From positions 1-64,000 of the forward strand of contig CAJYJH010000054.1 of the NCBI GenBank assembly GCA_913775265.1: a stretch of DNA of 64,000 bases, given 5' to 3'. Below, piece by piece: positions 4,386 to 35,485 of this stretch (the first letter of the stretch is position 1; each line of letters begins with the position of its first letter). Origin of the DNA: an uncultured Mucilaginibacter sp. GTDB taxonomy: Bacteria > Bacteroidota > Bacteroidia > Sphingobacteriales > Sphingobacteriaceae. A program made the position numbers and the translations under genes. The notes beneath the pieces are model-generated. The model saw only the letters and a program-made list of their open reading frames with translations, made no database searches and was not told where the DNA came from.

Positions 4386-4435
4386 ATCTTACGTTAGATG
4401 AAATTAAAACAATAAGGTTTAAAATAAAAATCAAA

Positions 4436-4990
4436 TTAATCGTTCGACGTTAAGTAGGCTTCAATCTTTTTCACGGCCAGGTGAAAAGATGCTTTTAATG
4501 CTCCTACACTCGTCCCTAACACTTCCGACATCTCTTCATACTTCATATCATCGTAATACTTCATATTAAAAACCAAACGTTGTTTATCCGGCAAAGTAAG
4601 TAAAGCACGTTGTAGCTTTAACTGTATTTTGTCGCCGCTCAAATAACTCGAATCAGCCAGAGTATCGGCCAGTTCATAAGATACATCATCGAGCGGTATA
4701 TTATTCTTTTGCTTCTTTTTATTCAAAAATGTAATGCACTCATTAGTGGCAATCCGGTACATCCAGGTATACAGCTGTGCATCGCTCCTAAAGCCTGGCA
4801 GGTTTTTCCATATTTTCACAAATATATCCTGCACCAGGTCGTCGGCATCGTCATGGTCTATCACCATGCGGCGCACATGCCAGTATATTTTTTGCTGATA
4901 TTTTTTCAGCAATAAGTTAAAAGCTTCGTTCCGGGTACGTTCGTCCTGAAATTTGCTGAGTATCTCGGTATCACTAACGGATGCTGACAT
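4436..4990 (-). CDS. RNA polymerase ECF sigma-70 factor
   Basis: The 184-residue product has the two-domain layout of an ECF sigma factor. Region 2 lies near residues 25-95 (DDADDLVQDIFVKIWKNL, then YTWMYRIATNECI). Region 4 lies near 130-182 (LPDKQRLVFNMKYYDDMKYE, then a helix-turn-helix LGTSVGALKASFH). It directs RNA polymerase to a small regulon, usually in response to an envelope signal. It is the first gene of a three-gene minus-strand operon with the repeat-bearing membrane protein and the Spy-like protein, so its activity is probably controlled by the former. Family assignment is firm; the signal and target genes are unknown. Confidence 0.93.
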   Translation of the reverse strand: MSASVSDTEILSKFQDERTRNEAFNLLLKKYQQKIYWHVRRMVIDHDDADDLVQDIFVKIWKNLPGFRSDAQLYTWMYRIATNECITFLNKKKQKNNIPLDDVSYELADTLADSSYLSGDKIQLKLQRALLTLPDKQRLVFNMKYYDDMKYEEMSEVLGTSVGALKASFHLAVKKIEAYLTSND

Positions 4991-28467: not shown

Positions 28468-29439
28468 ATGACCACCGAAGAAAGTACTTGGACTGGCGAA
28501 CGGCTCGAAACTTTTGTGTTTAACGAGAACACTATTGAGCACTTACACCGCTATGCCATTGCTATGGAACTGGCAGCCGGTAAAAAAGTACTTGACATAG
28601 CGTCGGGCGAAGGTTATGGTACCAACATGATGGCCGCAGTAGCTACCGAAGTAGTAGGGGTAGATATTGATGCGGAAACTATAGCAAACGCTCAACAAAA
28701 ATACACAAAATCAAATCTAAGTTTTAAGACAGGGTCGGCAGATGCTATACCCTGCAAAAGTGATTGTTTTGATTTGGTCGTAAGTTTTGAAACCATCGAG
28801 CATCACGACCGGCATCACGAAATGATGGCCGAAATAAAACGTGTGCTTAAACCCGGCGGTATGTTGCTGATATCGTCGCCCGATAAAAAATATTATAGTG
28901 ATTTAACAGGTTACAAAAATCCGTTTCACGTAAAAGAACTTTATCAGCAGGAATTTGAAGATTTACTAGCCCAATACTTTAAGCATACTAGTTACAGCCG
29001 TCAAAAAAATTTTGTTGGCTCATTGATCATCCCTCGGCTAGATCAAACAGATAATAATTCGGTAAATATGTACGATGGGGATTATGACGAGTTAAAACAG
29101 GGCGATATGGGAGCTCAGTTTTTAGTCGCTTTGGCTTCAGACCTTGAACTGCCGCAGTTTAAAATAAGTTTGTTTAATGGGCAGCAAATTGTACAGAAAC
29201 AAATTGATGACGTGCGCGAGCAAATAATGGCCTTTATGCAGCAACAAGCTGCTGATTATTTCGGGAAGATTCAGAAAGATGCTGCCGACCAGGCTGAATT
29301 AATGAGGAAACAGGCGCTAACCGATATTGAGCAAGCGCGTATGCAAGAAGCGGAAAAGCTGAGATGTACCCGCGATTACCGTATCGGTAATTTGCTGCTG
29401 TCTCCATTACGTACATTAAAAAAGATGTTTCATGCCTGA
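28468..29439 (+). CDS. SAM-dependent methyltransferase with C-terminal coiled coil
   Basis: The 323-residue product has a class I methyltransferase domain: motif I is VLDIASGEGYGTNMM near residue 40, VVGVDID follows, and motif IV is the FDLVVSFETIEHHDRHH region. Residues about 235-300 are rich in Gln, Ala, Glu and Lys with a heptad-like pattern (QIVQKQIDDVREQIMAF, then MRKQALTDIEQARMQEAEK), so a coiled coil is likely. In E. coli O8/O9a, WbdD ends the chain by methylation and uses a coiled coil as a ruler; a similar capping role is inferred here. No kinase domain is present. Confidence 0.85.
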   Translation: MTTEESTWTGERLETFVFNENTIEHLHRYAIAMELAAGKKVLDIASGEGYGTNMMAAVATEVVGVDIDAETIANAQQKYTKSNLSFKTGSADAIPCKSDCFDLVVSFETIEHHDRHHEMMAEIKRVLKPGGMLLISSPDKKYYSDLTGYKNPFHVKELYQQEFEDLLAQYFKHTSYSRQKNFVGSLIIPRLDQTDNNSVNMYDGDYDELKQGDMGAQFLVALASDLELPQFKISLFNGQQIVQKQIDDVREQIMAFMQQQAADYFGKIQKDAADQAELMRKQALTDIEQARMQEAEKLRCTRDYRIGNLLLSPLRTLKKMFHA

Positions 29440-30298
29440 GGTATCCGTTATTATTCCAAATTACAACCATGGCAAATACCTTACACAGCGTATTGATAGC
29501 GTACTCAATCAAAGCTTTCAAAATTTCGAGATGATTATACTCGACGATTGCTCTACTGATGATAGCGTAGCCATTATTGAGGCTTATCGAAGTCACCCAA
29601 AAGTGAAAAGGATTATCTATAATGATAAAAATAGCGGCAGCACATTCATCCAATGGGAGCGTGGAGCACAGGCTGCCACCGGCAGGTGGCTTTGGATAGC
29701 AGAGAGCGATGACTATGCTGAATGTAATTTGTTGGAAGAGCTGGTAAAGCTTATAAAAATTGATGAAGAAATTGGTATAGCATTTTGCGGTTCGCATTGG
29801 GTAGATGCAAACGGAAATATCAAGGAAGATCTATCTATTTACCATCAGTCATTTATACGTTCGGGCACAGTTGAGGTAGGCCAAGAGATGGTAAAGCATT
29901 GCACAATTCAAAATGCCAGTTCCTGTTTATTTAACCGCAAGAAGTTTTTAAGCAGTATCAAAAACTTAAAGACTTACAGGGCATGCGGAGATTGGGTGTT
30001 GTATGTACGCATGTTACAACAATGCGATTTGGCTTTCACTAACCAAAAGCTCAATTACTTTAGATGGTATCATACCAATATCAGTAATGCTGCTAAAGAA
30101 ACATTATGGATCACTGAGGGTATCGATATTTTAAGCAACATAGACACTCGGAAAGTCAGGTTTTCGGGCGAGCATTTTAATTGGGTAACTAGTTTCTGGC
30201 GAAATAAACTCGCCCCTTTGCCAACGAGCGAAAAAATTAAAGCGGTTATAAAGCTGCAATTGTTTAAGCTCAGGTACTGGAAAAGGAAGATTTTTTAG
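29432..30298 (+). CDS. GT2 family glycosyltransferase
   Basis: The 288-residue product starts MPEVSVIIPNYNHGKYLTQR, with the Asp pair in IILDDCSTDD and the acidic WIAESDDYAE near residue 92. It is a clear paralogue of the first enzyme of the operon: both share LNQ(S/T), NSGSTFxQW, and GIAFC. It overlaps the methyltransferase by 8 bp and is the last clear gene of the polysaccharide operon, 69 bp before the LanB gene. Confidence 0.9.
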   Translation: MPEVSVIIPNYNHGKYLTQRIDSVLNQSFQNFEMIILDDCSTDDSVAIIEAYRSHPKVKRIIYNDKNSGSTFIQWERGAQAATGRWLWIAESDDYAECNLLEELVKLIKIDEEIGIAFCGSHWVDANGNIKEDLSIYHQSFIRSGTVEVGQEMVKHCTIQNASSCLFNRKKFLSSIKNLKTYRACGDWVLYVRMLQQCDLAFTNQKLNYFRWYHTNISNAAKETLWITEGIDILSNIDTRKVRFSGEHFNWVTSFWRNKLAPLPTSEKIKAVIKLQLFKLRYWKRKIF

Positions 30299-30367: not shown

Positions 30368-33300
30368 TTGAACCTGTACAAGTTTCACAATACCGTTGTT
30401 TTGCGCCATCCGGTATATAGTTTTCAGCAATTTAGTGAACAAAACTTAGCCACTATACTGCAGGATCATTTTTTCAGAAACGCTATCTATTTATGCAGCC
30501 CAACCGTATTTGATGAATTAAAAAAGAACGATTTTGAATACGCTAAACTTAATGCTAAGCTTAAAAATACGCTTCTAAAATATTTTAACCGGATGTGCTA
30601 CCGACCCACACCATTTGCTCTGTGTGCAGCGGTGAGTGCAGTGAACTGGTCTGAAAGCAATGATGCAATCCTGTTTGATGAGGTGGCTTTACATCCCCTC
30701 GTAAAACTGAGTTATGCTAAAAGTTTACAGGTAGCAGCCAAAATAGTAGGTGCTGCAGAAGCCCAGTCAAGGGTTATGGCAAACGCTACCTTGTACAAAA
30801 CAGGCAAGCAAATACGGTATATTAAAAGCTTAACCGATGATACCGATAAAATAAGCTTTTGCATAGCATCTTCAGACATATCAAGCCTGCTGAACAAAAT
30901 TTTAAATTTTGCCGCTTCGCCGCGAGCTATTGACGAGGTCAAAGCATTTGTTATTAAAAAAGTAGACTGTACCGGACCTGAGGCGGCTGATTACTTACAG
31001 TCTCTTTTAAACGAGCAAATTTTAGTAGATTTAAGCGCGTTTAATATAACCGGAGTAGACTATCTGGATAAGTTAATGGAAAGTATTGGGAAGTACTCCT
31101 TAGCTTTTGATAATAGTGTTTACAATGATTTAAACAACATAATTAACGCTTCAACTTTAAACGAATATTTAAGATTGAATCGTACCCGTTTGCAAAAAAA
31201 CGACTTATATATCAACCTGGTAAGCAAGCTTGAAGATGGCTGCATCAACTCTGCATACCAAAATGCTATTTTGGATGGTTTGAATGGTTTAACACATGTT
31301 AATCAGCCGCATATGCCAAAAGCCATCAGCCAGTTTGTTCAACAATTCAATAAAAAATTTGAAGGGCAAACTATTCCGTTGTTGCTTGCGCTCGATCCTG
31401 AAGCAGGTGTTGGTTACGGCGAACTAACAACCTATAGTGAATCACTCAACTTTGCTGATGATATTGGGTGGAAGCAAGCGCAGGCAGATTCAGATAGCGT
31501 AAACTGGGGGCAATTGCAAAGACTTATTTTGTCCAAATGGACGACAGGAGGGAAGTATGAGCCTATAAAACTTTACAATTCTGATCTTAAACATTTTTAT
31601 AAATCTAAGCCGACTAAATTACCATCTGCCTTATCGGTGATGTTCAGGCCGGCAGGCGCAAAAGTATTAATCGAACAGGTGGCTGGAGTAACTGCTACAT
31701 CACTCATTGGAAGATTTACGCCTGTAAATGCTATGATTGACAAGTTAGCACAGGATATTGCTTTGCATGAAGCAGATAGTAATCCCGATATCATTTATGC
31801 AGAGATAGTTCACACTTGCCATAAGCAAACGGCTAATATTGACCGGCGCAATCATATTTATCCTTATGAAATTGTAATACTTACACCATCAACTTTAGAC
31901 GAGCACTTCCAAATACTTTTATCTGATTTATATGTTTCTGTACAAAACCATGAGCCAATATTATGGTCGGCAAGGCTTAAAAAAAGAGTTGTACCGCGTT
32001 TAAGTTCAGCATTTAATTATCAGCGGGACGACCTGGCAGCTTTTCGCTTTTTATGCGATCTGCAACATATTGGCGTACAAACCAATTTCAATTTTACTAT
32101 TGAAAATTTTTTTCCAGGATTAGATTACTACCCGCGTGTAGAATTTGAGCAGGCTATATTGCATTGTGCACAATGGCATTTAGATGCAGAAACATTTGCC
32201 TCGGTTTTAACCGAAAAGGACAAGCTAAAACTCACAGATGCATTCAAACATTTACGGCAACGGCTGCAGTTTAGCAAATATGTAGCCCTTACTCAACATG
32301 ACAATCAGTTATTGTTTGATCTGGATCAGCCTGCTGATGTAGACTTTTTTTTGGAAACCATCCGGCCTTTAAAAAAAACTGTTATCAGGGAGGTACTTAC
32401 CGACACTATTAATAGCCCTTTGTTATACAATAATAACAATGAGGGAATAGTCAGTCAGTTTATCGCCACCCTGTATCATGAGGAGAGAGTTTATCAGCCC
32501 AAAGTTTTTAATCTGCCGGTAACTAAACGGCAATCAACCCGCAAGTTTACGCCCGGTACGGAATGGTTGTATTTGAAACTATACTGTCATTCGGCCAGAA
32601 CAAATGAAATAATTGGTAACGTACTATTCAAAGTAGCAAAAAACGCTTTAAAGGCCGAGTTAATTACACAATGGTTTTTTACTCGGTACAATGATCCGGA
32701 TCAACATATTCGATTCAGACTGAAAGTGCAATCAGGAAAATACGAGAATGTTATTGAGGTGTTTAATCAGGCTGTCGCTCTATATCAGAAGCAAGGATTA
32801 TTAAGTAGTATCATAATTGATACTTACAACCGGGAGTTAGAACGTTACCCTGATATTGATGCGGTTGAAAATATTTTCTATTATAGCAGTGTTTGGGTAG
32901 GCTATTACTTAAATAGTACATGGCAACAACTTAAACAAGAGGACTCTTTGGCTTTCGCATTTTCAACAACCCGCAAGCTGCTCGATGCTGTTAGATCTTC
33001 AAATGACGAAAAAATAACCTACCTGACTAACGTAGTTGATAGCTTTATGAACGAATTTAGCCATATACCCAACTTAAAATACCAGTTAGACTTAACCTAC
33101 AGAAAGCACAAGTTATTTTTATCAAGCTTAAAAGATGCCCCGGCTTTAAATGCTAATAGCAAACTCAAAAAAATAGGAGAAGAAAATTGCAGACATTTGG
33201 CTGCTTACATTAAGCAACTAGGTGCATTACCGGTTTCAACCATATATAAACACTTGGCCGACGTCATTCATATGCATCTGAACCGCATTTTTAATGACCA

Positions 33301-33382
33301 ACCGCGCGAGCAGGAATTTACTTTATACTACCTGCTTTTGAAATATGAAAAAGCAGGTAAATACTTCAGTCAAACTGTATAA
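30368..33382 (+). CDS. Class I lanthipeptide dehydratase (LanB), full length
   Basis: The 1004-residue product carries both LanB parts. The N-terminal glutamylation domain (about 1-700) opens with VVLRHPVYSF and holds RPTPFALCA at 79-87. The C-terminal elimination domain (about 720-985) has EWLYLKLYCHSA, WFFTRYNDPDQHIRFRLKV (RxR near 783-785), DTYNRELERY near 817 and VIHMHLNR near 965, whose His matches the catalytic His of NisB. LanB enzymes dehydrate Ser and Thr in precursor peptides using glutamyl-tRNA. The start is a TTG. The 3' end overlaps the convergent LytS gene by 17 bp. No LanC is near. Confidence 0.93.
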   Translation: MNLYKFHNTVVLRHPVYSFQQFSEQNLATILQDHFFRNAIYLCSPTVFDELKKNDFEYAKLNAKLKNTLLKYFNRMCYRPTPFALCAAVSAVNWSESNDAILFDEVALHPLVKLSYAKSLQVAAKIVGAAEAQSRVMANATLYKTGKQIRYIKSLTDDTDKISFCIASSDISSLLNKILNFAASPRAIDEVKAFVIKKVDCTGPEAADYLQSLLNEQILVDLSAFNITGVDYLDKLMESIGKYSLAFDNSVYNDLNNIINASTLNEYLRLNRTRLQKNDLYINLVSKLEDGCINSAYQNAILDGLNGLTHVNQPHMPKAISQFVQQFNKKFEGQTIPLLLALDPEAGVGYGELTTYSESLNFADDIGWKQAQADSDSVNWGQLQRLILSKWTTGGKYEPIKLYNSDLKHFYKSKPTKLPSALSVMFRPAGAKVLIEQVAGVTATSLIGRFTPVNAMIDKLAQDIALHEADSNPDIIYAEIVHTCHKQTANIDRRNHIYPYEIVILTPSTLDEHFQILLSDLYVSVQNHEPILWSARLKKRVVPRLSSAFNYQRDDLAAFRFLCDLQHIGVQTNFNFTIENFFPGLDYYPRVEFEQAILHCAQWHLDAETFASVLTEKDKLKLTDAFKHLRQRLQFSKYVALTQHDNQLLFDLDQPADVDFFLETIRPLKKTVIREVLTDTINSPLLYNNNNEGIVSQFIATLYHEERVYQPKVFNLPVTKRQSTRKFTPGTEWLYLKLYCHSARTNEIIGNVLFKVAKNALKAELITQWFFTRYNDPDQHIRFRLKVQSGKYENVIEVFNQAVALYQKQGLLSSIIIDTYNRELERYPDIDAVENIFYYSSVWVGYYLNSTWQQLKQEDSLAFAFSTTRKLLDAVRSSNDEKITYLTNVVDSFMNEFSHIPNLKYQLDLTYRKHKLFLSSLKDAPALNANSKLKKIGEENCRHLAAYIKQLGALPVSTIYKHLADVIHMHLNRIFNDQPREQEFTLYYLLLKYEKAGKYFSQTV

Positions 33383-34475
33383 ACAGGTCAACGGTGTATT
33401 GATGGTCTGTTTGAGTTACTTTTAGTTTGTGCTTATCAGGGTAAGTGGCATTCAGCCTTGTACGGGCATTTACAATACCAATTTCGAAGCCTTGTTTGTT
33501 TTTGCCAGCTTGGTTTACCTGGTTATTTGCCGAAAAGTATAAGTCGCCATCTCTAATAGCTATTTTAATTTCGGCCGGAAAGTTAGTGTTTAAAATAATG
33601 CCGTGCTTAAATATATTCTCTACAAAAGTCAACAAAATTAACGGAATGATTCGTTTGTCGCTAAAGTCACCACTAGTGATAAGCTGAACCTGCAGTTTTT
33701 GATCAAACCTGAGTTGGTTGATAGCAATAACAGTTTCAATATTTTCTACTTCCTTTGTTAATTCTACTTTGCCGTCTCCGCCCAATTCTGTAAGTGAATA
33801 GCGCATCAGGTCAGACAGTAACATGATGCCTTCTGCTCCCTTTTCTGATACGTTGTATACAGAGTTGTAAAGGAAATTTAACGTGTTAAATAGTAAATGT
33901 GGATTAATTTGAGATTGCAAATATGCATTGCGGGTTTTGAATAATGCTTTTTCAAGATCGGCTTTCTTTTTATTTTGAATAAGCTGTCGTGTTCTAAGTT
34001 TATTGATCTTACTGCCCGTTTCAATTGAATGCGTAAAAATCCAATATCCAAAGCTCAGGCATAATATATAAAAAGCACGATATCCACCTAATAAAAAAAA
34101 ATGTTTTAAAGATGCTATAGGCTTTGACATCCCTTTCATAATTAATACTTCGTTGACGAGGAACTGAAGCATAAAATAACAGATGATTACTATTACTATG
34201 AGGCAGCAATAATAAAACGCTTTGTTTTTAGTGCGAATGCTGTAGTCTAAGCACCAGGCATTAGTATAAAATAGTAATGCGTTTGCAGAGTAGTGTAAAA
34301 AGTAATCCAAAAATGTGGATACATATCCGCTAACTGACCAAACAAAGGAAATTTCATAGGCCACAAACATTAGCCACACTATGCTGTGTATTAAAATTGT
34401 TTGTTTTTTTACCATTATTTCAGATTTATAAACCCTCTCCAAAAGGTTGTACGGCTCGCTAAAAAGCGCCTTCAC
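33366..34475 (-). CDS. LytS-type sensor histidine kinase
   Basis: The 369-residue product has four to five membrane segments in the first 150 residues, a short coiled linker and a His_kinase domain. The phosphoacceptor is His193 in SQINPHLLFNTLN; N- and G-box residues are FVENIFKHG and GIGIVNARTRL-like (EIGIVNARTRL). It would sense a membrane or external signal and phosphorylate the LytTR regulator whose gene lies on the same strand at 34754. Met21 (34415) is an alternative start and would widen the divergent region to 116 bp. It flanks the putative RiPP precursor gene, which reads the other way. Confidence 0.9.
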   Translation of the reverse strand: MKALFSEPYNLLERVYKSEIMVKKQTILIHSIVWLMFVAYEISFVWSVSGYVSTFLDYFLHYSANALLFYTNAWCLDYSIRTKNKAFYYCCLIVIVIICYFMLQFLVNEVLIMKGMSKPIASLKHFFLLGGYRAFYILCLSFGYWIFTHSIETGSKINKLRTRQLIQNKKKADLEKALFKTRNAYLQSQINPHLLFNTLNFLYNSVYNVSEKGAEGIMLLSDLMRYSLTELGGDGKVELTKEVENIETVIAINQLRFDQKLQVQLITSGDFSDKRIIPLILLTFVENIFKHGIILNTNFPAEIKIAIRDGDLYFSANNQVNQAGKNKQGFEIGIVNARTRLNATYPDKHKLKVTQTDHQYTVDLFIQFD

Positions 34476-34506
34476 GTAATAAAATAAAAAGGGATGTAAA
34501 GTAAAA

Positions 34507-34533
34507 ATAGATTTATCTAAAAGTTAAATCTAT
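34507..34533 (+). promoter_or_regulatory. 9-bp inverted repeat overlapping the precursor start codon
   Basis: ATAGATTTA (34507-34515) and TAAATCTAT (34525-34533) are perfect inverted copies with a 9-nt loop. The right arm ends on the A and T of the ATG. It could be an operator for a dimeric regulator or an mRNA hairpin that hides the start. No TAnnTTTG box was found in the divergent region. Confidence 0.5.
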
Positions 34534-34699
34534 GAAAAAGCAACTATCACAATCATTAAAGCTTAAAACCAAAACGCTTTTTAAATTTAAAAATCAACAG
34601 TTAAATAGCGGTCCCAAGTTTTTCTTCCCGACGGAGGTACCTACAACTACCGTTACAGTTGATCCAACAACGAGTACCACTATTACTGTTACCCATTAG
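34532..34699 (+). CDS. Putative Cys-free, Thr-rich RiPP precursor peptide (LanB substrate)
   Basis: This 55-codon gene encodes a leader MKKQLSQSLKLKTKTLFKFK, then NQQLNSG, then a tail PKFFFPTEVPTTTVTVD and PTTSTTITVTH. The leader has the basic, LxLKxxT-type pattern of Bacteroidota class I lanthipeptide precursors. Residues 34-54 hold eleven Thr and one Ser; the whole peptide has no Cys, so lanthionine rings cannot form. SG stands where a GG cleavage site is usual. It lies on the plus strand between LytTR and LytS genes, 1.15 kb after lanB. That it is translated and is the LanB substrate is inferred. Confidence 0.7.
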   Translation: MKKQLSQSLKLKTKTLFKFKNQQLNSGPKFFFPTEVPTTTVTVDPTTSTTITVTH

Positions 34700-34720
34700 T
34701 TCATAGTTAGTTTTAGTTAA

Positions 34721-34754
34721 GAAAGGCGGCAGGCTATTTAAACGGCTGCCTTTC
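34721..34754. terminator. Hairpin between precursor and LytTR genes, probably a bidirectional terminator
   Basis: GAAAGGCGGC and its near-complement GGCTGCCTTTC form a 10-bp stem with one wobble pair around a loop of about 13 nt. It starts 21 bp after the precursor stop and touches the stop codon of the convergent LytTR gene. T-rich sequence on each side is modest. Confidence 0.6.
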
Positions 34755-35485
34755 TAATTCACTATCCGCCTTTTAAGTATACTCTTTGAAATTTTATTAA
34801 AGAAATATTCTCGATAACTGTTACCTATGGTAAGCTTTATCTTATCATGGATAATGACCTGGTTACCTTCAATAAAGCGTATTTTATCGTCGTTGATAAT
34901 TAAAGACTTATGAATACGACTAAAGGTAGGCTCAGGCAGACTAAGTAATATTTCTTTTAAAGTAAGGTAAACAATGTGTTTATTATCAGGCAAATGGATA
35001 ATGATATAATTGTTTAAGCTTTCGATGTATAAGATATCATCAAACTTAATCCGAGCCATTTGCCCTTTAGCTCCTGATTGGACGAAAATATGTTTAGGTG
35101 GCTCATCGGCAGCAACAATTTTTTTAGGCTCGGGATCTTGCGGTTTCAGCCGCTGTACACATTGTAAAAATCGTTGATATTTAATGGGTTTGAGAAGGTA
35201 GTCATAGCTGCCTAAGTCGAAAGCCTCAAGGGCAAAGCCAGGGTGTGCTGTGGTAAAAACTACTTTAATTTTTTTATTAAAATGCTTACTTACCTCTGTG
35301 CCTGATAACAGGGGCATTTCAATATCAGTAAATACGATATCTGGCTGCAAAGCCGAAATCTCGTGCAGGGCATTTACCGGGTTGTCGTTACTTCCTATCA
35401 GCTCTAAGCCCGGTGTTTGGTTTATATAGCTGTTTAAAATATTGATGGCATGACTTTCATCATCAATAATGTAACAGGTGGTCAT
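34754..35485 (-). CDS. LytTR-family response regulator
   Basis: The 243-residue product has a receiver domain with phosphoacceptor Asp54 in DIVFTDIEMPLLSG and the conserved Lys in YLLKPI. A LytTR DNA-binding domain runs from about residue 135 to 240 (IKFDDILYIESLNNYIIIHL, later FSRIHKSLIIN). It is the expected partner of the LytS kinase encoded downstream on the same strand. The putative precursor gene is inserted between them in antisense, so this pair may control the peptide's expression. Confidence 0.93.
   Translation of the reverse strand: MTTCYIIDDESHAINILNSYINQTPGLELIGSNDNPVNALHEISALQPDIVFTDIEMPLLSGTEVSKHFNKKIKVVFTTAHPGFALEAFDLGSYDYLLKPIKYQRFLQCVQRLKPQDPEPKKIVAADEPPKHIFVQSGAKGQMARIKFDDILYIESLNNYIIIHLPDNKHIVYLTLKEILLSLPEPTFSRIHKSLIINDDKIRFIEGNQVIIHDKIKLTIGNSYREYFFNKISKSILKRRIVN

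What the first reader, a model, noticed from the sequence alone, without database searches (positions are those of the whole stretch)
30368..35485. LanB system with a Cys-free, Thr-rich precursor and no LanC
Seen: a full-length LanB with intact glutamylation and elimination motifs, a 55-codon gene with a leader of Bacteroidota lanthipeptide type and a tail with 11 Thr, 1 Ser and no Cys, a LytS/LytTR pair around it, and no LanC, LanT or protease between 21 and 41 kb. Known: class I lanthipeptides need Cys and LanC for rings. Inferred: the product is a linear peptide rich in dehydrobutyrine, a RiPP type I do not know from Bacteroidota.
Basis: partly seen in the sequence, partly recalled or inferred. 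Interest (0 to 1): 0.85.

Follow-up and report, generated by a model that had tools for sequence, protein, structure and literature searches.

The report
Ring-free Thr-rich peptide family with LanB
A soil-type bacterium carries a four-gene cassette, found again in more than a hundred related genomes, in which a lantibiotic-type enzyme probably turns many threonines of a tiny, mostly cysteine-free peptide into reactive double-bond residues without making rings, next to its own two-component switch.

Summary
LanB (window 30368-33382) is full length, keeps every catalytic residue checked and is the genome's only LanB; the genome has no LanC over cut-off and no C39 peptidase. The 55-codon frame (34532-34699) is a real gene: the 65%-identical LanB locus in the same genus has it too (dN 0.07, dS 0.97). 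Of 120 LanB loci read, 105 carry a homologous 42-67-aa precursor, 103 of these with both a LytS-type kinase and a LytTR regulator, and 1 with LanC. Of 111 precursors, 76 have no Cys and 96 none in the second half; 15 do. In 399 genomes of the family, 137 have the precursor and all 137 have a LanB. A shared DNA element lies about 57 nt before the start. Best reading: a RiPP family whose only linked tailoring enzyme is LanB, giving a linear dehydrobutyrine-rich peptide, linaridin-like but made by tRNA-Glu chemistry. Dehydration, linearity and regulation are inferred. The leader is not the known Bacteroidota type: 1 of 111 against 20 of 20 canonical controls.

The parts
30368..33382 (+). LanB-type tRNA-Glu-dependent dehydratase, full length, glutamylation and elimination domains (TTG start as listed; true start uncertain)
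   Evidence: Pfam, residue check, AlphaFold model whose best PDB matches are MadB, MibB and NisB
33366..34475 (-). LytS-type membrane histidine kinase (PF06580, QINPHLLFN box)
   Evidence: a kinase hit in 103 of 105 precursor loci
34448..34487 (+). Conserved upstream element (GTAATAA core, 56 nt before the precursor ATG); likely, not shown, to be the binding site of the LytTR regulator
   Evidence: one pattern match in the own genome
34532..34699 (+). 55-aa Cys-free Thr-rich precursor peptide gene
34720..34756 (.). Strong hairpin between the convergent precursor and regulator genes, terminator-like by eye; a similar inverted repeat is seen by eye in L037
   Evidence: (z -3.36, 1 of 200 shuffles as stable); the consensus terminator scan found none here
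34754..35485 (-). LytTR response regulator
   Evidence: a regulator hit in 104 of 105 precursor loci

Best explanation
A four-gene RiPP cassette (lanB, LytS-type kinase, LytTR regulator, precursor). The kinase and regulator switch on the precursor through an element about 57 nt before its start (inferred). LanB recognises the N-terminal leader, glutamylates Thr residues of the C-terminal TDPTTTT.T..T.TH-type core with Glu-tRNA and eliminates glutamate, leaving several dehydrobutyrines (inferred from the intact active-site residues). With no Cys in most precursors and no LanC linked, no thioether ring is expected, so the product is a linear Dhb-rich peptide, linaridin-like in structure but made by a LanB. 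It may be released by general export or proteolysis and act as a secreted signal or toxin; this last part is speculative.
For: 105 of 120 LanB loci carry the precursor; of these 103 have kinase and regulator, 103 have LanB and precursor on one strand, 1 has LanC in the held stretch. Genomes: 137 of 137 precursor genomes have LanB, 0 of 181 LanB-less genomes have the precursor, 78 of 137 have no LanC-domain protein at E <= 1e-5. Residues equivalent to NisB R14, R83, R87, R784, R786, E823, H961 in 104 of 104 aligned precursor loci; Y80 102, T89 92, R826 100. Second halves of precursors hold 7.4 Thr and 0.16 Cys on average against 1.5 and 0.87 in all 40-70-aa ORFs of the loci (partly by construction, since seeds were picked as Thr-rich). 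dN/dS about 0.08. 110 of 117 LanBs form one branch, SH-aLRT 100, apart from the canonical LanC loci. Held-out matrix of the upstream element has its best hit of the whole locus before the precursor in 69 of 90; column-permuted control 0 of 90.
Against: No mass, expression or binding data. 15 of 111 precursors have Cys in the second half and 20 in the first half only. LanC lies near the cassette in L156 and L193. 81 of 218 LanB genomes have no precursor hit and 59 of 137 precursor genomes have some LanC-domain protein. No exporter or leader protease is tied to the cassette. No correlation of precursor core with kinase sensor beyond shared descent (partial -0.03). A sigma-70 consensus scan finds no more promoter-like sites than shuffles (10 against 9.5).
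Confidence: 0.72

Rival explanations
1. The modified peptide is itself the signal read by the neighbouring LytS-type kinase: an autoinducing Dhb-peptide loop.
For: Kinase and regulator beside the precursor in 103 of 105 loci; likely regulator element before the precursor and, in L096 and L166, before LanB.
Against: No excess correlation of precursor core with the kinase sensor half (partial -0.03; leader with sensor 0.19; core with regulator 0.26). No exporter. The kinase may sense something else.
Confidence: 0.3
2. LanB works with an unlinked cyclase or a small thiol, so that the Dhb residues end up as thioethers after all.
For: Glutathione adducts of dehydrated peptides are known from heterologous production (PMC9993889, passages); 59 of 137 precursor genomes have some LanC-domain protein.
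Against: The window genome and 78 of 137 precursor genomes have no LanC. Among LanB genomes LanC is not associated with the precursor (59 with, 78 without, against 32 and 49; p 0.67).
Confidence: 0.12
3. LanB only glutamylates, or adds amino acids like a PEARL, without dehydration.
For: LanB relatives with other chemistry exist (PEARLs; seen in the search listing).
Against: The elimination domain is complete (PF14028) and its residues, H968 (NisB H961 equivalent) included, are in 104 of 104 (R826 in 100, K in 4).
Confidence: 0.08
4. A canonical class I lanthipeptide cluster that has decayed by losing LanC and the Cys precursor.
For: LanB family membership; a few loci with LanC nearby (L156, L193).
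Against: Purifying selection on the Cys-free precursor, conservation over several genera, separate LanB branch.
Confidence: 0.03

Closest known systems
Class I lanthipeptides (nisin; Bacteroidota cases named in the passages read: pinensin, PedA15.2, ChmA, RuiA)
   Same: LanB with glutamylation and elimination domains (pinensin has them split), leader plus Ser/Thr-bearing core, catalytic residues as in NisB
   Different: LanC in 1 of 105 loci, no Cys in most precursors, no LxLxKx5L-GG leader, no C39 peptidase in the window genome, own LytS/LytTR pair, separate LanB branch
Linaridins (cypemycin, legonaridin; recalled)
   Same: Predicted linear product rich in dehydrobutyrine
   Different: Dehydrated by other enzymes (recalled), not by a tRNA-Glu-dependent LanB
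Thiopeptides, goadsporin, spongiicolazolicins
   Same: LanB-type dehydration in RiPPs that are not lanthipeptides (PMC10676384, passages)
   Different: They use a split LanB and YcaO-made azoles; here LanB is one chain and no azole enzyme is linked
PEARLs (small LanB-like ligases)
   Same: Related to the LanB glutamylation part, no LanC (recalled)
   Different: They lack the elimination domain (recalled); here it is complete

Membership tests
Class I lanthipeptide | LanB with glutamylation and elimination domains and catalytic residues | tested here: met
Class I lanthipeptide | LanC cyclase | tested here: not met
   None over cut-off in the genome; 1 of 105 precursor loci
Class I lanthipeptide | Cys in the core to form (methyl)lanthionine | tested here: not met
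   0 Cys in the window precursor; 96 of 111 without Cys in the second half
Class I lanthipeptide | Known Bacteroidota leader (LxLxKx5L, often GG) | tested here: not met
   1 of 111 match LxLxKx5L, none in the window, against 20 of 20 canonical controls; no NCBIfam hit
Linaridin | Linear peptide with dehydrobutyrines | not testable with these tools
   Needs mass spectrometry; predicted only
Linaridin | Linaridin-type dehydration enzymes | not tested
   No search for these families was run
Thiopeptide or goadsporin type | Split LanB | tested here: not met
   Both domains in one chain
Thiopeptide or goadsporin type | YcaO azole synthesis | tested here: inconclusive
   No YcaO among the 10 window proteins scanned around the cassette; the genome was not searched for it
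PEARL | LanB-like protein without elimination domain | tested here: not met
   PF14028 complete, 182 bits
LytS/LytTR-controlled peptide system | Kinase and LytTR regulator beside the peptide gene | tested here: met
   103 of 105 loci
LytS/LytTR-controlled peptide system | Regulator binds before the peptide gene | not testable with these tools
   A conserved element is there; binding not tested

The most novel reading that the evidence does not exclude
An undescribed, widespread RiPP class in Sphingobacteriaceae, Chitinophaga and Pontibacter: LanB-only linear poly-dehydrobutyrine peptides with a TDPTTTT.T..T.TH-type core, made under their own LytS/LytTR switch and acting as a self-sensed signal (a Dhb pheromone).
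Probability: 0.25. Interest if true: 0.9.

Novelty: new variant of a known kind. Interest (0 to 1): 0.77.

Why it matters
Surveys that start from LanC, as the two large ones whose passages I read do, cannot see clusters without LanC. In this family sample 127 of 218 LanB-bearing genomes have no LanC match, and a conserved, mostly Cys-free precursor stands beside LanB. If the product is a linear Dhb-rich peptide, LanB chemistry reaches a ring-free peptide class, minimal LanB systems with natural Thr-rich substrates become available for mechanism work, and environmental Bacteroidota gain a peptide system tied to a two-component switch.

Tried and rejected
The search for related loci with the single LanB gave no relative; an alignment query gave 80 named loci. 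Walker 2020 and Marsh 2010 were checked for LanC-less LanB clusters: passages only, both start from LanC. Coevolution of precursor core and kinase sensor over 97 loci: no excess. A conserved protein of about 385 aa just after the precursor in 52 of 105 loci was followed as a possible cyclase or protease: no Pfam model hit by more than 1 of 14 members at E <= 1, best PDB sequence match E 0.2, no PDB fold match at E <= 0.001, no match in the window genome; not counted as a part. SusC/SusD, RteC, SUF and phosphoglucomutase neighbours change with lineage. PADLOC: no hits for 5 proteins. Promoter and terminator consensus scan: nothing above shuffles.

Rows dropped or kept before counts: L186 fetched and not used; L057-L086 used only to build the LanC HMM (29 sequences passed); L039, L089 and L167 (short or broken LanB frames) left out of the tree and residue check. 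Of 132 precursor-HMM hits, 20 in the canonical loci L168, L173, L181, L184 and 1 short frame in L094 were left out, leaving 111; one of the two L157 frames in the 111 is probably an artefact. HMM seeds were picked by eye. The upstream-element matrix was anchored on GTA[AT] at -85 to -40, so that core is there by construction; 90 of 105 loci gave a site. The 80 named loci largely are the same genomes as the unnamed ones and are not independent.
Full report
Checking the observation. LanB at 30368-33382 (+) matches Lant_dehydr_N and Lant_dehydr_C over nearly their full lengths and is the only LanB match in the 4.9-Mb genome, which is rated 99.9% complete. The genome has no LanC over the curated cut-off. 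Of five weak hits, three frames were scanned: one is a GH76 glycosidase, one GH88-like, one without a family. It has no C39 peptidase match, in a search that rings in 8 of 14 control genomes. The 55-codon frame at 34532-34699 has no Cys, and 11 Thr and 1 Ser after residue 30. The kinase (33366-34475, -) and LytTR regulator (34754-35485, -) are as described.

The frame is a gene. The nearest LanB (65% identity, G151, same genus) sits in the same order of genes and has an 87%-identical 55-aa Cys-free frame. Eighteen codons differ synonymously and seven not; dN 0.074, dS 0.974. A profile of the precursor finds exactly one place in the own genome.

A family-wide cassette. I read the window and 119 LanB loci of relatives. 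An iterated HMM, seeded by eye, finds a precursor in 105 of 120 loci; none of the once-shuffled small ORFs passes E 0.05. The usual order is lanB >, regulator <, kinase <, precursor >, exactly so in 78 of 117 loci with a full-length LanB; in the window, L037 and a group of mostly g14 genomes it is lanB >, kinase <, precursor >, regulator <. Of the 105, 103 have both kinase and regulator hits, 103 have LanB and precursor on one strand, and 1 (L156) has LanC in the held stretch; of the 15 loci without the precursor, 6 have LanC. Among those 15 are canonical loci with GG leaders and several Cys (L173, L181, L184). Flanking genes change between lineages: SusC/SusD, RteC, SUF genes, phosphoglucomutase.

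Genome-level test. In 399 genomes drawn from the family, 218 have a LanB match at E <= 1e-5, 101 a LanC-domain match at E <= 1e-5 and 137 a precursor at E <= 0.001. All 137 precursor genomes have LanB; none of the 181 LanB-less genomes has a precursor; 81 LanB genomes have no precursor hit; 127 of 218 LanB genomes and 78 of 137 precursor genomes have no LanC; among LanB genomes LanC and precursor are not associated (p 0.67). Named loci lie in Mucilaginibacter, Pedobacter, Pontibacter, Chitinophaga, Daejeonella, Hufsiella, Pararcticibacter and unnamed Bacteroidetes MAGs; 75 of 80 carry an HMM hit, many being the same genomes as the unnamed ones. One of the 75, L191 (Pontibacter litorisediminis), is a canonical Cys-rich locus with LanC; L193 (Chitinophaga sp. 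CF118) has a Cys-free precursor and a LanC-like gene just upstream of LanB. The closest named locus, L187 (62% identity), ends before the precursor would begin.

Anatomy of the precursor. Length 42-67 aa, mean 52.6; consensus of 62 members MK....K..K.K......F....TDPTTTT.T..T.TH, with the Asp in 90% or more. Of 111 precursors, 76 have no Cys, 20 have Cys in the first half only and 15 in the second half; seven of the last come from one LanB subclade with cores like DPTNTCTT. The second half holds 7.4 Thr and 0.16 Cys on average, against 1.5 and 0.87 in all 40-70-aa ORFs of the loci; the seeds were chosen as Thr-rich, so part of this is by construction. No NCBIfam or Pfam model is hit by more than 1 of 62 members at E <= 1. 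The Bacteroidota leader motif LxLxKx5L with GG (PMC7268733, passages) is found in 1 of 111 precursors and not in the window's, against 20 of 20 canonical precursors of the same loci.

LanB chemistry. Residues equivalent to NisB R14, Y80, R83, R87, T89, R784 and H961, mutated in PMC4341554 (passages), and to R786, E823 and R826 (recalled) are R13, Y72, R75, R79, T81, R782, H968, R784, E823 and R826 here. Among 104 aligned precursor loci all are kept, except Y80 in 102, T89 in 92 and R826 in 100. The same residues are also kept in the loci without precursor, so they show a working dehydratase, not what sets this branch apart. Equivalences were set by motif, not by superposition. The AlphaFold model (mean pLDDT 83.4, pTM 0.68) has MadB, MibB and NisB as best PDB matches, with TM 0.55-0.61 over the chain and rmsd 12-14 A, so the domain arrangement is not accurate. 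In the LanB tree 110 of 117 proteins form one branch with SH-aLRT 100 (quick method, some long branches flagged, the five canonical rows not one clade); 6 of the 110 had no precursor hit.

Control. A conserved element with a GTAATAA-like core lies 51-82 nt before the precursor ATG, most often 57; some loci show two similar copies 21 nt apart by eye, the spacing I recall for LytTR sites. A matrix built without the locus under test and without similar sites places its best hit of the whole locus, both strands, within 150 nt before the precursor in 69 of 90 loci; with permuted columns 0 of 90. With the full matrix at 13 bits or more, 72 hits lie before precursors, 43 inside genes or far from one, 2 before LanB and the rest before assorted genes. 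In the own genome the window's pattern occurs once. Over 97 loci the precursor core shows no excess correlation with the kinase sensor half (-0.03); core with regulator gives 0.26, leader with sensor 0.19. Binding and sensing are open.

Mechanism. Shown: the conserved cassette, selection on the precursor, intact LanB active-site residues, no LanC in the window genome and in most genomes with the precursor, and the shared upstream element. Inferred: Thr dehydration, linearity of the product, control by the regulator. Speculative: export and role. No exporter or protease is tied to the cassette; none was searched for genome-wide except C39.

Literature. Ten searches of an open-access library returned no paper that, from its listing, describes LanC-less LanB clusters with Cys-free precursors in Bacteroidota; passages were read of PMC9993889, PMC7268733, PMC3091789, PMC10352776, PMC4341554, PMC12328550, PMC10609062 and PMC10676384. 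The two Pedobacter lusitanus papers (Caetano 2020, Bothwell 2021) are not held and may mention such LanBs, so novelty in print is not proven.

Noticed in passing
L164:3243-4403 (-) and homologues, e.g. L045:3886-5049 (-), L112:3246-4391 (-): A protein of about 385 aa with no Pfam family and no PDB fold match at E <= 0.001, all-helical in the model (pLDDT 86), lies on the precursor's strand, mostly within about 100 nt after it, in 52 of 105 loci. Its end looks RteC-like by eye. No match in the window genome.
   Followed up: partly
window 28468-30298: A methyltransferase and a family 2 glycosyltransferase directly upstream of LanB on the same strand, also in L037; probably part of a polysaccharide gene run, but they could be co-transcribed with LanB.
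   Followed up: partly
L172, L178, L179: Two or three tandem copies of the precursor between kinase and regulator, with a core NPTGDQSHTVMTS or VPTGDQSHTVMTS instead of DPTTTT.
   Followed up: no
L176:9958-10119 (+) and 4429-4587 (-): Two diverged Cys-free frames with a Ser-rich end, 56-57 nt after a strong match to the shared upstream element, beside a LanB outside the main branch.
   Followed up: partly
L193 (Chitinophaga sp. CF118): A LanC-like gene just upstream of this LanB type with a Cys-free precursor downstream: possibly an intermediate between ring-forming and ring-free systems.
   Followed up: partly
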